A DNA stretch of 34,788 nt from Desulfotomaculaceae bacterium (GTDB taxonomy: Bacteria; Bacillota; Desulfotomaculia; Desulfotomaculales; Pelotomaculaceae). The stretch lies in contig JAQVGZ010000018.1 in NCBI GenBank assembly GCA_028696455.1, positions 1-34,788 of the forward strand, in the 5' to 3' direction. The position numbers and the translations under genes are program-made. The notes beneath the pieces are model-generated. The model saw only the letters and a program-made list of their open reading frames with translations. It was not told the DNA's origin and made no database searches. Positions 9,766 to 33,370 of this stretch are shown piece by piece; within the stretch, counting starts at the first letter, position 1, and the number at the start of each line of letters is the position of its first letter.

Positions 9766-10876
9766 ATGTACACAGACTTAAAAAGGGAGCTTGAACCACT
9801 TAAAAGGCGTATAGAAGATTTGAGGGTTTCTCTTTGACATACTTAAAAAGGAAAGGGAAATATCTTTACTTGAAAAGCAGATGTTAACAACCGGTTTCTG
9901 GGAAGTGCAGGACCAGGCGCAAAGAATTGTCCAGCGGATAGCGCAATTAAAGGATAAGGTAGCACTTTTCCAGGAACTGGCCATGGATTTTGAGGATTTG
10001 GAAGTACTGGTCGAACTGGGTGAAGAAGACAACGATGAGACTGTAGCCACTGAAATAAGGGAGGGAATTATATCCCTTTCCCGCAAGGTGGCGGACCTGG
10101 AGCTGACTGTATTATTAAGCGGCCCATACGACCGTGGTAATGCGATCATCTCACTTCATGCCGGGGCTGGGGGTACCGAGGCCCAAGATTGGGTGGCGAT
10201 GCTGGTCCGCATGTATACCCGTTGGGCGGAGCGCCACAAATTCAAGATTGATGTGCTTGATATGCTTCCAGGCGATGAGGCGGGCACAAAAAGCGCTACC
10301 CTTGAAGTAATCGGCCCAAACGCTTACGGCTACCTGCGTTCAGAAAAAGGGGTGCACCGGTTGGTGCGCATTTCCCCTTTCGATGCAGCCGGCCGCCGGC
10401 ACACGTCCTTTGCCTCACTGGATGTTCTTCCCGAGGTGGAAGACGATGTAGACGTAAAAATAAATCAGGAAGATTTAAAAATTGATACCTTCCGCTCCAG
10501 TGGCGCAGGGGGACAGCATATTAATAAGACAGACTCTGCTGTTCGGATCACTCACATCCCTACGGGAATTGTTGTTACATGTCAGAATGAGCGCTCCCAG
10601 TTTTCCAATCGTCTGGCTGCTATGAAAATGCTCCGGGCCAGGCTAACCGATTTAGAACTACGCAAAAAAGAAGCTGAACTGGCTGCCATGCGCGGCGACC
10701 AGCAGGAAATTGCCTGGGGCAGTCAGATACGCTCCTATGTTTTTCACCCCTACAGCCTGGTGAAAGACCATCGCACCAATGAGGAAACCGGGAATATCAA
10801 CGCTGTTATGGATGGAGAAATAGACTCCTTTATTGCCACCTATTTAAAAGAAAAAGCACGAGTTCAGGAAGGATAG
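9766..10876 (+). CDS. prfB: Peptide chain release factor 2, with programmed +1 frameshift
   Basis: RF2 releases finished peptides at UGA and UAA. The first 23 codons (ATG 9766 to CTT 9832-9834, ribosome site GAAGAGGTG) end at an in-frame TGA (9835-9837). The rest of the protein continues in the +1 frame from GAC at 9836, giving about 369 residues in all. After the shift the protein has the RF2 signature SPF tripeptide that reads the stop codon (VRISPFDAAG) and the GGQ loop that triggers hydrolysis (SGAGGQHINKTDSA). Calling only the downstream frame, for example from the ATG at 9881, would lose the first 38 residues. It probably shares the secA transcript and ends at a clear terminator. Confidence 0.97.
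9823..9838 (+). other. RF2 autoregulatory +1 frameshift site
   Basis: The sequence reads AGG GTT TCT CTT TGA C: a Shine-Dalgarno-like AGGG upstream, the slippery CTT, the UGA stop and the poor C context after it. This is the conserved RF2 feedback switch: low RF2 lets the ribosome pause at UGA and slip one base forward. Confidence 0.95.
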
Positions 10877-23627: not shown

Positions 23628-25754
23628 CTAATCCCCAGGTTTTAATCGCATTAGACGGATGCTGTTCAGAGTGACGAGGACTGTTGCCCCCATATCTCCC
23701 AGGATAGCCAGCCATAGCGTAAGCCACCCCGGGAAGACTGCCAGAACCGCAATGGTCTTGATAGCCAGGGCAAAAGCAATGTTCTGTCGGATAATCCTCA
23801 GAGTAGCCCGGCTGAGTCTGATAGTAAAGGGGAGCTTGGTGAGGTCATCTGCCATTAGGGCAATATCGGCTGTTTCCAGCGCTATATCAGTGCCAGCCCC
23901 TCCCATGGCGATCCCTATATTCGCCGTGGCCAGCGCTGGGGTGTCATTAACCCCGTCACCAACCATAGCCACCTTTCCATATTTCTCTTGATAAGTCTCA
24001 ATTGCGGTCACTTTATCCTGAGGTAGAAGTTCAGCGCGATACTCATCCACTCCTGCCCGTTCAGACATAGCCTGAGCTGTGGCCTCATTATCCCCGGTGA
24101 GCATGATCGTATGCTTGATGCCCAGCCTTCTCAAAGCTGCCAGAGAGGCTTTAGTGGTTTCACGGACCTCATCCGCTACAGCGATAAGACCCAGGAAGCC
24201 TTGCCGTGTTCCGACAAGCATGACTGTTTTACCTTCCTTTTGGAGAAGGGCGACTTGCTCATCGATTAAGTTGGATTTGATGCCTAACGACTTGAACAGA
24301 CAGGGGTTACCGATATAAATTTTTTGTTCATTTATTGTGCCCTGGGCTCCCCGGCCGGCAATATTACTAAAATCTTCCGCAGGACTCCAGGCAAGATGGC
24401 GGGCTTTTGCAGCTTTAATAATTGCCTCCGCTAGTGGATGTTCTGAACGGGTCTCCAGAGCAGCGGCGATTTGCAGCAACTTTTGCTCGGAGCAGGTTCT
24501 GGCGGGAATAATGTCGGTGACGGCAGGCACGCCTTTAGTCAGGGTTCCTGTTTTATCGAAGGCGATAGCCTGAATAGTGCCAGCCTCTTCCAGGTAAATG
24601 CCACCCTTGATCAGAACCCCTTGCCGGGCGGCGTTACTGATGGCACTCACGATTGCTACCGGTGTGGATACTACCAGCGCGCAGGGGCAAGAAACTACTA
24701 GGAGTGCCAGACCCCGGTAAAACCAGGGCTCCCAGTCATAGCCAAGGAACAGGGAGGGGGCCAGGATAATCCCTAAAGCGAGGACTAGTACTATGGGGGT
24801 GTAGATAGCAGCAAAACGTTCTACAAAAGCCTGGGCGGGCGCCCGTTTAGACTGGGCTTCTTCCACCAGGTTAATAATTTTCGCAATAGTGGTATCCTGA
24901 ACATGCTTGGTTACTTCAACCTCCAGGGAGCCACTGATATTTAGCGTACCAGCGTAAACTTCAGCGCCGATTCCTTTTTCCACTGGCGCCGACTCGCCCG
25001 TAATCGAAGCCTGGTTAATTGCTGACTCACCCTTAATAATGCGCCCATCCATAGCAATTTTTTCACCGGGGCGAATGATCATAAGGTCTCCCACCATAAT
25101 TTCCTCTACCGGGACATCCACTTCACCATCGGGCCGGGAAATTCGGGCTGCTTTTGGCGCAATGTGCATGAGGCGGTCAATTGCATGGCGCGCCCGGTCC
25201 ATAGTCCAGACTTCCAGCATTTCTGAGATCGCATATAAAAAAGCGACTACTGCACCTTCTTCCCAATGGCCAATGGCCATAGCCCCGAGGATAGCCATGC
25301 TCATCAGCACGCTCATGTTGAAGTCCAGCCGGGATAGAGAGTAAAAGGCCTTACGGAAATTACCCCACCCACCGATAGCTATGGCAGCCACATACATCGG
25401 AATGTAGACTGCTGAAGAGACAGTTATCCACTCTGCGATATAACCGGCCAATAATGCCACCAGGGCGGTTGCCACCCGGATCGGCTCCCAATTAATTCGG
25501 GGCTTTACCGGCCCGGCCAGTGACTCGTGATCGGGGAAAACATTGTAATTTTCCTTTCTGCCTTCCCCCCGGATCGCCTCCAGGCTGACTGCACCCTCAA
25601 CCTTAAGTTTACCTATCATCGTGTTAAAGCTGACTCTGGTTACACCAGGGAGAGCCGCTACGCTTTTCTCAAACTTGACGGCACAGTCCATTCAGGTAAT
25701 CCCCTCTACTCTATAAACAGTGACAGGGGCGGCTAATGCTTTGGCCTTGCGCAA
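23628..25754 (-). CDS. Zn/Cd/Pb-type P1B ATPase with in-frame TGA at the metal-binding CxxC (putative selenoprotein)
   Basis: A heavy-metal efflux P-type ATPase of the CadA/ZntA group. It has the CPC membrane motif (VVSCPCALVVS), phosphorylated Asp in DKTGTLTKG, SEHPLAEAI, GDGVNDTPAL, and the DMGATVLVTLNSIRL end typical of Zn/Cd pumps. The easy call starts at ATG 25691 (687 residues, MDCAVKFEK). However, the frame upstream is open and encodes the missing front of an HMA domain (VTVYRVEGIT), then TGA at 25692-25694, then MDCAVKFEKSVAALPGV. TGA replaces the first Cys of GITCxDC. With TTG 25754 as start (ribosome site GAAGGTGAT) the product has about 708 residues with residue 21 as Sec; ATG 25844 is another possible start. 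Readthrough is unproven. A nonsense mutation with reinitiation at 25691 is the alternative. Confidence 0.85.
25692..25694 (-). other. In-frame TGA at first Cys of CxxC: candidate selenocysteine codon
   Basis: On the minus strand the codons read GGG ATT ACC TGA ATG GAC TGT GCC (G-I-T-*-M-D-C-A). The second Cys of the motif is intact, and homology to HMA domains is continuous across the TGA. Only one base separates TGA from a Cys codon. A SECIS and a Sec-decoding system would be needed; neither can be confirmed from this window. Confidence 0.6.
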
Positions 25755-26430
25755 GATTATCACCTTCGATAATGGTGTTGCTTTAGTATTATCAGACTTT
25801 AAAGAGTCAATGACGCATTTGGGCTTTTGAACTCTCTTAAACATTTCCAGCCAAATATATAATATGATTAGAAGCCATTATCGGTATGTATGGACAAGTT
25901 CAATAAACGTATATTTATGTCTCAGGCAGAAAAAAATCGGCCCGGTGCTGGCCTTGATTATCTGTCGTCAATATTATCGGCCATTATTTTACCCGGGCAT
26001 AATAAACGTATATTTTTTGTCATCGAGCACCCATTTATAATTACCACACTAAACTGGCGCCAAGGCGCAGGACATTATTGTCTACTATGATTTCGTTAAA
26101 GATACTAAACTACCTATAGCTGAGGCAGATACTTGAAAAAAATTCACCAGTGGGAATTCCCCCCCTGGAGCCTCTGTAAGCTATTAAATCTTTTAAGTAG
26201 TACACATTAGTATCAGTAGATGCGCATACAATTATCCTATATCGCTAAAGATGAGGTGAAGCTGTGTTTACCAGGCACTGGATGTTACCTGAAACATGCC
26301 ATTGTAGTTCTGGCTGCTCATCTAAGTCCTGGGCATGACTTTAAACTGCCCCTAAATAAATTAAAAAATAAATTCTGTCCTGACATACATACTCGTGATA
26401 GTCTCTAGGGTATGGCAGATTATACGAAAT
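25755..26430 (+). repeat. Intergenic stretch with a 15-base direct repeat; no recognised gene
   Basis: AATAAACGTATATTT occurs at 25902-25916 and 26001-26015 (99-base period). Short open frames exist at 25890-26090 and 26220-26408 on the plus strand, but they lack convincing ribosome sites, family resemblance or coding character. The part next to the ATPase holds its upstream region. Nothing else was recognised. Confidence 0.4.
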
Positions 26431-32539: not shown

Positions 32540-33331
32540 TTAAGCCGTTCCTTTATTACTTTTGTCTTTATCAATGTCTACCGAAAAATTGTTTGCAACC
32601 CCACCTGGTGCTATACCAATAAACTGCTGCCCGGGGCAGACAAAGCCCCCTGGTGTTATACACTGTGAGCCGCCGAATTGGAAAGGTCCGCAGGGTGGTC
32701 CGAATTGAAAGGGGCCGCATCCAAAGGTGAAAGGTCTACAAGGTTGCCCAAACTGGAATGGGCCGCAACCAACGGTGAAGGGTCTGCAAGGTTGCCCAAA
32801 CTGGAATGGGCCGCAACCAACGGTGAAAGGTCTACAGGGCTGCCCAAACTGAAATGGACCACAGAAAAATATCGGGCCGATACAGACAATTTCTGCTTGA
32901 GGATCACTTTCCTGTGATCCCACAAATCCGAAGAATTGTGTTCCTGTACAAGCAAAAGTAACCGGGCACTGGGAGCCTCCCTGAGAGGGTACGTAGCTGC
33001 CCGGGCAGGCAAATGAACCGGTGCAGAGATCAGGTGGCCTGCATGTGTACTGTTGACTGCAGTTAAATTGGGCACCGGTACAAGCTATTTGAGTCTTTAC
33101 TTTTTCTCTTAACTTCTGTGCCAGAGCTTTCATATTTTCTTCGGTGAGAGAACGTTTTACGGGCTCCCAGATAATTTGGATATTTTTCAAATGAATTATC
33201 CCAACTCCATCATCGGTTTCAAAACGTACAGTTTCCTGATCTACTGATGATACCGTAACCGGAAGTATTCTTCCATTAGTTAGCTCAAGAATAATTCTTT
33301 TACCCTGATTGGCTTTCAAATGTTCGAGCAA
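32540..33331 (-). CDS. Cys-rich tandem-repeat protein with Lsm-like N-terminal domain (probable spore coat protein)
   Basis: A protein of about 263 residues. The N-terminal about 60 residues form a small beta domain (GKRIILELTNGRILPVTVSS ... GIIHLKNIQIIWEPV) resembling the Lsm/CotB-type domain of spore coat proteins. Next is a short helix, then about 180 residues rich in Cys, Gly, Pro, Phe and Gln. Residues 157-220 are four 16-residue units of the form CGPFQFGQPCRPFTVG (two Cys each, the last one variant). The likely start is TTG 33331, 8 bases after AAGGAG; GTG 33340 overlaps that site. A sigma-K-like promoter lies upstream. Mother-cell expression and disulfide cross-linking in the coat are inferences. 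Confidence 0.7.
   Translation of the reverse strand: MLEHLKANQGKRIILELTNGRILPVTVSSVDQETVRFETDDGVGIIHLKNIQIIWEPVKRSLTEENMKALAQKLREKVKTQIACTGAQFNCSQQYTCRPPDLCTGSFACPGSYVPSQGGSQCPVTFACTGTQFFGFVGSQESDPQAEIVCIGPIFFCGPFQFGQPCRPFTVGCGPFQFGQPCRPFTVGCGPFQFGQPCRPFTFGCGPFQFGPPCGPFQFGGSQCITPGGFVCPGQQFIGIAPGGVANNFSVDIDKDKSNKGTA
32672..32863 (-). repeat. Four 48-base tandem repeats inside the Cys-rich gene
   Basis: The array is 192 bases long, exactly four 48-base units in frame with the coding sequence. The first three units are nearly identical at the DNA level; the fourth (nearest the 3' end of the gene) has diverged to CGPFQFGPPCGPFQFG. This points to recent repeat amplification. Confidence 0.9.
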
Positions 33332-33370
33332 TTTAACCACTCCTTTAATGGCTATTCAATCCTACTATGT

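What the first reader, a model, noticed from the sequence alone, without database searches (positions are those of the whole stretch)
23628..25754. P1B metal ATPase with UGA at the first Cys of its CxxC metal site: candidate selenoprotein
The frame upstream of the apparent ATG (25691) encodes the expected start of an HMA domain, VTVYRVEGIT, and is separated from MDCAVKFEK only by TGA. In HMA domains that position is the first Cys of CxxC (here GIT-TGA-M-D-C). A stop arising by chance exactly at a Cys codon whose recoding by Sec would give a UxxC motif is notable. If real, a heavy-metal pump binds metal through a selenolate. The alternative is a single-base nonsense change (TGC or TGT to TGA), with reinitiation at ATG 25691 helped by GAGGGG 9 bases before it.
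Basis: partly seen in the sequence, partly recalled or inferred. Interest (0 to 1): 0.88.

Follow-up and report, generated by a model that had tools for sequence, protein, structure and literature searches.

The report
Selenocysteine metal pump, known selenoprotein family
This bacterium's zinc/cadmium-type export pump almost certainly carries selenocysteine, read from an in-frame UGA, in its front metal-binding site; the family was already on published selenoprotein lists, so this is a well-supported new member rather than a new kind of thing.

Summary
In detail: on the minus strand a TTG start (25754) leads through VTVYRVEGIT-UGA-MDC into a P1B-2 (CadA/ZntA-like) ATPase, and the UGA (25694-25692) sits at the first Cys of the HMA CxxC. 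It is not a sequencing error or a single-strain nonsense change. UGA occupies the same column in at least ten genomes among 100 relatives, and in 60 of 63 hits of a motif scan across about 85,000 species. In 398 genomes of the phylum a motif allowing TAA, TAG, TGA or TGG found 11 sites, all TGA. The genome has SelA, two SelB, tRNA-Sec and a UGA-containing SelD. A SECIS-like hairpin starts 9 nt after the UGA, shows compensatory changes, and is stronger than the protein sequence demands. In one Bacillaceae-like family, UGA forms occur only in SelA-positive genomes (10/0). [quoted passage not shown] Modestly new: breadth (Bacilli, Coriobacteriia), mixed C/U tandem HMA domains, the SECIS evidence, and one Sec-less host carrying UGA copies.

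The parts
23628..25754 (-). Gene for a 708-residue P1B-2 (CadA/ZntA-like) ATPase with one in-frame UGA read as selenocysteine (residue 21)
   Evidence: Translation with TGA=U; NCBIfam ATPase-IB_hvy 620 bits, ZntA model 617 bits against CopA model 377 bits; 53.7% identical to Staphylococcus aureus plasmid CadA
25752..25754 (-). Inferred TTG start codon, with GAAGGTG Shine-Dalgarno-like sequence at 25761-25767
   Evidence: Read directly from sequence; no experimental start
25692..25694 (-). UGA codon at the first Cys position of the HMA CxxC (UMDC)
   Evidence: same column in relatives
25683..25685 (-). Second metal-ligand codon of the motif, TGT (Cys)
25654..25682 (-). SECIS-like hairpin: lower stem 25682-25678/25658-25654, upper stem 25674-25671/25665-25662, loop GAGAA 25670-25666
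   Evidence: MFE -13.0 kcal/mol, z -1.69 on its own; 32 homologues with this stem: all 9 pairs in most, compensatory changes, energy -18.4 against -12.4 for synonymous shuffles, p=2e-9
25566..25718 (-). HMA (heavy-metal-associated) domain
   Evidence: Pfam PF00403
24681..24689 (-). CPC transmembrane metal-site motif
   Evidence: Residues 356-358
24543..24557 (-). DKTGT phosphorylation motif
   Evidence: Residues 400-404; PF00122 and PF00702 domains

Best explanation
The gene encodes a P1B-2 type Zn2+/Cd2+/Pb2+ exporting ATPase whose N-terminal metal-binding site is UxxC instead of CxxC. Translation starts at TTG 25754. SelB with Sec-tRNA-Sec, recruited by the hairpin that starts 9 nt downstream, decodes the UGA as selenocysteine, and the ribosome goes on to make the full pump. 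The selenolate and the second Cys would bind the soft metal ion and pass it to the CPC site in the membrane, or sense it, probably with higher affinity or faster exchange than a CxxC. Shown here by sequence: gene, motif, conservation, Sec machinery, hairpin. Inferred: actual Sec insertion, the metal carried and the advantage of Se.
For: Frame and motif. UGA at the same column in relatives L011-L017, L021, L024, L026 and in 60 of 63 hits of a motif scan across Bacillota, Actinomycetota and Methylomirabilota, nearly all followed by a long P1B ATPase frame (about 690 residues where the fetched stretch is long enough). Stop specificity: 11 of 11 sites are TGA, 0 TAA/TAG, 0 in the reversed control, 398 genomes. 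Own genome: SelA 516 bits, two SelB over cut-off, tRNA-Sec 66.7 bits (cut-off 47; ARAGORN anticodon tca), SelD with its own in-frame TGA. SelA in 41 of 42 genomes reached through UGA-ATPase loci and in 0 of 3 chance-hit genomes. In one family of 29 genomes, UGA forms in 10 SelA+ and 0 SelA- genomes; p=5e-5. Hairpin favoured by synonymous codon choice in Sec forms (p=2e-9), not in Cys forms. ArsR-type repressors next to many copies.
Against: No protein, 75Se or read-level data. Alicyclobacillus sp. ALC3 has two UGA copies but no SelA or SelB, so the gene can sit in a host that cannot decode it; one of the two is also broken further down. The hairpin of the window alone is not exceptional by shuffling (z -1.69). 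RNAalifold over all 58 divergent windows gives no single consensus structure; the long stem is confined to a subgroup. Metal specificity rests on homology only.
Confidence: 0.94

Rival explanations
1. Nonsense mutation or sequencing error in this strain; the pump is made from ATG 25691 by reinitiation and lacks the first part of the HMA.
For: An ATG directly follows the UGA, with GAGGGG upstream.
Against: UGA is fixed at the same column in many species; only TGA, never TAA or TAG; the ATG after it occurs in only 10 of 62 windows; the coding sequence upstream of the UGA is kept, with mostly synonymous change between own genome and a same-genus relative (5 synonymous, 1 nonsynonymous of 10 codons, L011 against L013; other pairs are less clear).
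Confidence: 0.02
2. UGA is read by leaky near-cognate readthrough as Trp, Arg or Cys rather than as Sec, giving a small amount of full-length pump.
For: Alicyclobacillus ALC3 keeps one long downstream frame after the UGA without Sec machinery.
Against: Strong co-occurrence with SelA, UGA only, hairpin selected at synonymous sites in UGA forms and not in Cys forms.
Confidence: 0.02
3. Regulatory recoding: with selenium the full UxxC pump is made, without it a shortened pump starting at or after the UGA, so that selenium supply sets metal affinity. (A variant of the best explanation, not exclusive of it.)
For: ATG directly after the UGA in this window and several Desulfotomaculaceae relatives. 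In ALC3, a Sec-less genome, a long frame persists downstream of the UGA.
Against: The ATG is absent in most members (52 of 62); nothing shows the short product.
Confidence: 0.06

Closest known systems
[quoted passage not shown]
   Same: Same protein family, same UxxC motif; listed in PMC9312934 and PMC13188914, 32 proteins in 25 organisms in PMC5029168, one metagenomic gene in PMC2398784.
   Different: Those papers list the family with motif and counts; the passages I read give no SECIS analysis or taxonomic spread. The example sequence itself was not available for alignment here.
CadA (Staphylococcus aureus plasmid cadmium ATPase)
   Same: 53.7% identical over 99% of the length; same P1B ATPase architecture.
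   Different: CadA has CxxC in its HMA (from my own knowledge); here the first Cys is UGA-encoded.
ZntA (P1B-2 Zn/Cd/Pb exporter)
   Same: Matches the ZntA models best among the named pumps.
   Different: Scores below the curated ZntA equivalog cut-off (617 against 1005 bits), so it is ZntA-like, not ZntA proper.

Membership tests
P1B-type heavy-metal ATPase (TIGR01525) | Score over the curated family cut-off | tested here: met
   620 bits against cut-off 346
P1B-type heavy-metal ATPase (TIGR01525) | CPC, DKTGT, TGES, HPLA and GDGVND motifs | tested here: met
   All found
ZntA equivalog (PRK11033) | Score over the curated equivalog cut-off | tested here: not met
   617.5 against 1005 bits; so filed as ZntA/CadA-like only
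Bacterial selenoprotein (cation-transporting ATPase UxxC family) | In-frame UGA aligned with Cys of homologues | tested here: met
Bacterial selenoprotein (cation-transporting ATPase UxxC family) | Host encodes SelA, SelB, SelD and tRNA-Sec | tested here: met
Bacterial selenoprotein (cation-transporting ATPase UxxC family) | SECIS hairpin just downstream of the UGA | tested here: met
   Hairpin with compensatory changes and synonymous-site selection; single-sequence z only -1.69; SelB binding not tested
Bacterial selenoprotein (cation-transporting ATPase UxxC family) | Selenium present in the protein | not testable with these tools
   Needs 75Se labelling or mass spectrometry
Zn2+/Cd2+/Pb2+ exporter | Metal-stimulated ATPase activity or resistance phenotype | not testable with these tools
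   Inferred from homology and from ArsR neighbours in relatives

The most novel reading that the evidence does not exclude
Selenium supply switches the pump between a full UxxC form and a shortened form, so that the cell couples heavy-metal export (perhaps of Hg2+ or Cd2+, which bind selenolate very tightly) to selenium status. The members with tandem HMA domains in C,U,U or U,C arrangement would then be graded metal sensors.
Probability: 0.06. Interest if true: 0.75.

Novelty: new member of a known kind. Interest (0 to 1): 0.38.

Why it matters
Most selenoproteins of known function are redox enzymes. Here Sec sits in a metal-binding site of a transporter, so it tests whether nature uses selenium for metal coordination rather than catalysis. 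The family is on published lists but, as far as I could find, its biochemistry has not been studied; the many cultivable Bacillaceae with a UGA form, some in the same family as Cys forms, make the question testable. Practically, a standard gene caller would start such genes after the UGA or call them broken (inference), so the metal site would be lost from annotations.

Tried and rejected
The family's example protein ABB15669 is not in the record collections, and the 2005 Carboxydothermus genome paper is not held. PMC1794560 and PMC1914089 do not mention this ATPase. RNAalifold over all 58 divergent windows gave no consensus structure, so the hairpin was tested on the upper stem for all and on the long stem for the matching subgroup. 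A first pass through the relatives read minus-strand loci in the wrong orientation and was redone. L019 first looked like a Cys form, but it is the same contig as L072 and has two HMA domains, first U then C; it was removed before recounting (4 changes of U/C on the tree). Plasmid records hold only homologues under 60% identical; whether any carry UGA was not checked. An RNase P search was used only to learn the window's genome.

Full report
The observation. On the minus strand the window reads, from a TTG at 25754 with GAAGGTG 6 nt upstream, LRKAKALAAPVTVYRVEGIT, then TGA (25694-25692), then MDCAVKFEK and a complete P-type ATPase to a stop ending at 23628. Pfam HMA rises from 20.1 bits (below the 24.8 cut-off) to 35.7 bits when the TGA is read as a Cys-like residue. 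The protein is a P1B heavy-metal ATPase (620 bits for TIGR01525), nearer to ZntA than to CopA models but below the ZntA equivalog cut-off, and 53.7% identical to S. aureus plasmid CadA. CPC, DKTGT, TGES, HPLA and GDGVND motifs are present.

Is the UGA chance or error? No. Among 100 related genomes the best matches carry one in-frame TGA; reading each shows TGA at the same HMA column in L011-L017, L021, L024 and L026, from 79% down to about 53% identity, while other homologues have TGC or TGT there. A DNA motif with TGA at that column, scanned over one genome for each of about 85,000 species, gave 63 hits; 60 are HMA-ATPase frames with the UGA in place and three (L068, L093, L106) are short chance matches. 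The same motif with TRR in place of TGA, in 398 genomes of the phylum, found 11 sites: all TGA, none TAA, TAG or TGG, and none with the reversed control pattern. Reinitiation at the ATG after the UGA cannot be the general explanation, since only 10 of 62 distinct windows have ATG there.

Is the machinery there? The window's genome has SelA (C36, 516 bits), SelB next to it and a second SelB on C64, tRNA-Sec (66.7 bits, cut-off 47; ARAGORN agrees, anticodon tca) and SelD, itself with one in-frame TGA. Of 42 genomes reached through loci with the UGA ATPase, 41 have SelA; the three genomes of the chance hits have none. All 28 relatives of the same order that were tested have SelA whether their ATPase is U or C, so that group does not discriminate. 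The discriminating group is the family of G126 (Bacillus sp. FJAT-44742), where 14 of 29 genomes have SelA over cut-off: UGA ATPases occur in 10 SelA-positive and 0 SelA-negative genomes, close Cys orthologues in 8 SelA-negative and 2 SelA-positive genomes, one of which also has a UGA copy (Fisher p=5e-5 over all 29 genomes, 1e-4 among those with a close orthologue). These genomes are related, so the p-values overstate independence.

The SECIS. Starting 9 nt after the UGA, the window folds into a lower stem of 5 pairs, an upper stem of 4 pairs and a GAGAA loop (-13.0 kcal/mol, z -1.69). Alone this is weak. Across 59 distinct UGA windows, the upper stem forms 3.54 of 4 pairs against 2.97 expected when synonymous codons are reshuffled with each gene's own usage (p=2e-9); in 20 Cys homologues it is 1.45 against 1.56, no difference. 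In 32 windows with the long stem the observed mean energy is -18.4 against -12.4 kcal/mol for synonymous shuffles (p=2e-9), with two-sided changes at pairs 14/38 (C-G, G-C, T-A) and 23/29 (C-G, T-A). The sequences are related, so these p-values too are upper estimates of significance. RNAalifold over all 58 windows together gives no structure, so the lower stem is not universal.

History. On a FastTree phylogeny of 98 proteins U and C change 4 times (5 times before a mislabelled two-HMA protein was removed). The most distant group is all Cys; within the UGA-bearing part, Cys forms are nested three times. This fits one old gain and three losses, though unrooted counts cannot prove direction. 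Multi-domain members exist: a Syntrophomonas protein (L094) has three tandem HMA domains with C, U, U, and a Pelotomaculum contig (L072/L019) has U then C.

How it most likely works. Shown: gene, UGA at a metal ligand, machinery, conserved and selected hairpin. Inferred: SelB-dependent insertion of Sec; UxxC binds Zn2+, Cd2+, Pb2+ or a softer ion and hands it to the CPC site. ArsR-type regulators lie just upstream of many relatives, and one pair of copies sits with a cation diffusion facilitator, one of them beside a Tn3-type resolvase. In the window the neighbours are an Rnk/GreA-like gene upstream and a B12-dependent ribonucleotide reductase downstream, so the local context adds nothing.

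An unexplained case. Alicyclobacillus sp. ALC3 (complete chromosome) has two copies with the UGA but neither SelA nor SelB. One copy keeps an open frame to the end of the fetched stretch; the other is broken after 175 residues. The resolvase and transposase-like frames next to one copy suggest transfer into a host that cannot decode the UGA. It shows that the gene's presence is not proof of Sec insertion in every host.

Comparison with what is known. This is a member of a recorded selenoprotein family. [quoted passage not shown] PMC5029168 counts 32 such proteins in 25 organisms; PMC2398784 has one in ocean data. PMC13188914 groups it among predicted transporter selenoproteins mostly implicated in metal or metalloid resistance whose roles need study. 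I found no biochemical paper in the library on this family. So the finding is real and correctly read, but a new member of a known kind. Interest is moderate: Sec as a metal ligand in a transporter is unusual and untested, and the present data name cultivable organisms in which to test it.

Noticed in passing
L098 and L112 (Alicyclobacillus sp. ALC3 chromosome): Two UGA-bearing CadA-like genes next to ArsR and CDF genes, one beside Tn3-type resolvase/transposase-like frames, in a complete genome without SelA or SelB.
   Followed up: partly
L094:3259-6000: Syntrophomonas sp. STD2_151 pump with three tandem HMA domains, the first with CxxC and the next two with UxxC, so two UGA codons in one gene, downstream of an ArsR gene.
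   Followed up: partly
L072/L019 (Pelotomaculum sp. UBA4789, same contig) and L119 (Dethiobacter sp.): Two-HMA pumps with U in the first HMA and C in the second.
   Followed up: partly
L054:3781-5703 and L053:6898-8820 (own genome): Two full selB genes; one beside selA, the other beside an FdhA fragment and an FlpD/MvhD gene. A same-genus relative (G002) has three matches, G013 two.
   Followed up: partly
window 9767-10876 (+): prfB (release factor 2) with an apparent programmed +1 frameshift site, CTT TGA C near 9832-9838, the usual autoregulation of RF2.
   Followed up: no
window 32540-33340 (-): Cys-, Gly- and Phe-rich protein with repeated CGPFQFGQPCRPFTVG units; no Pfam match.
   Followed up: no
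L129 (own genome, selD): SelD contains one in-frame TGA, as in known Sec-containing SelD proteins.
   Followed up: no
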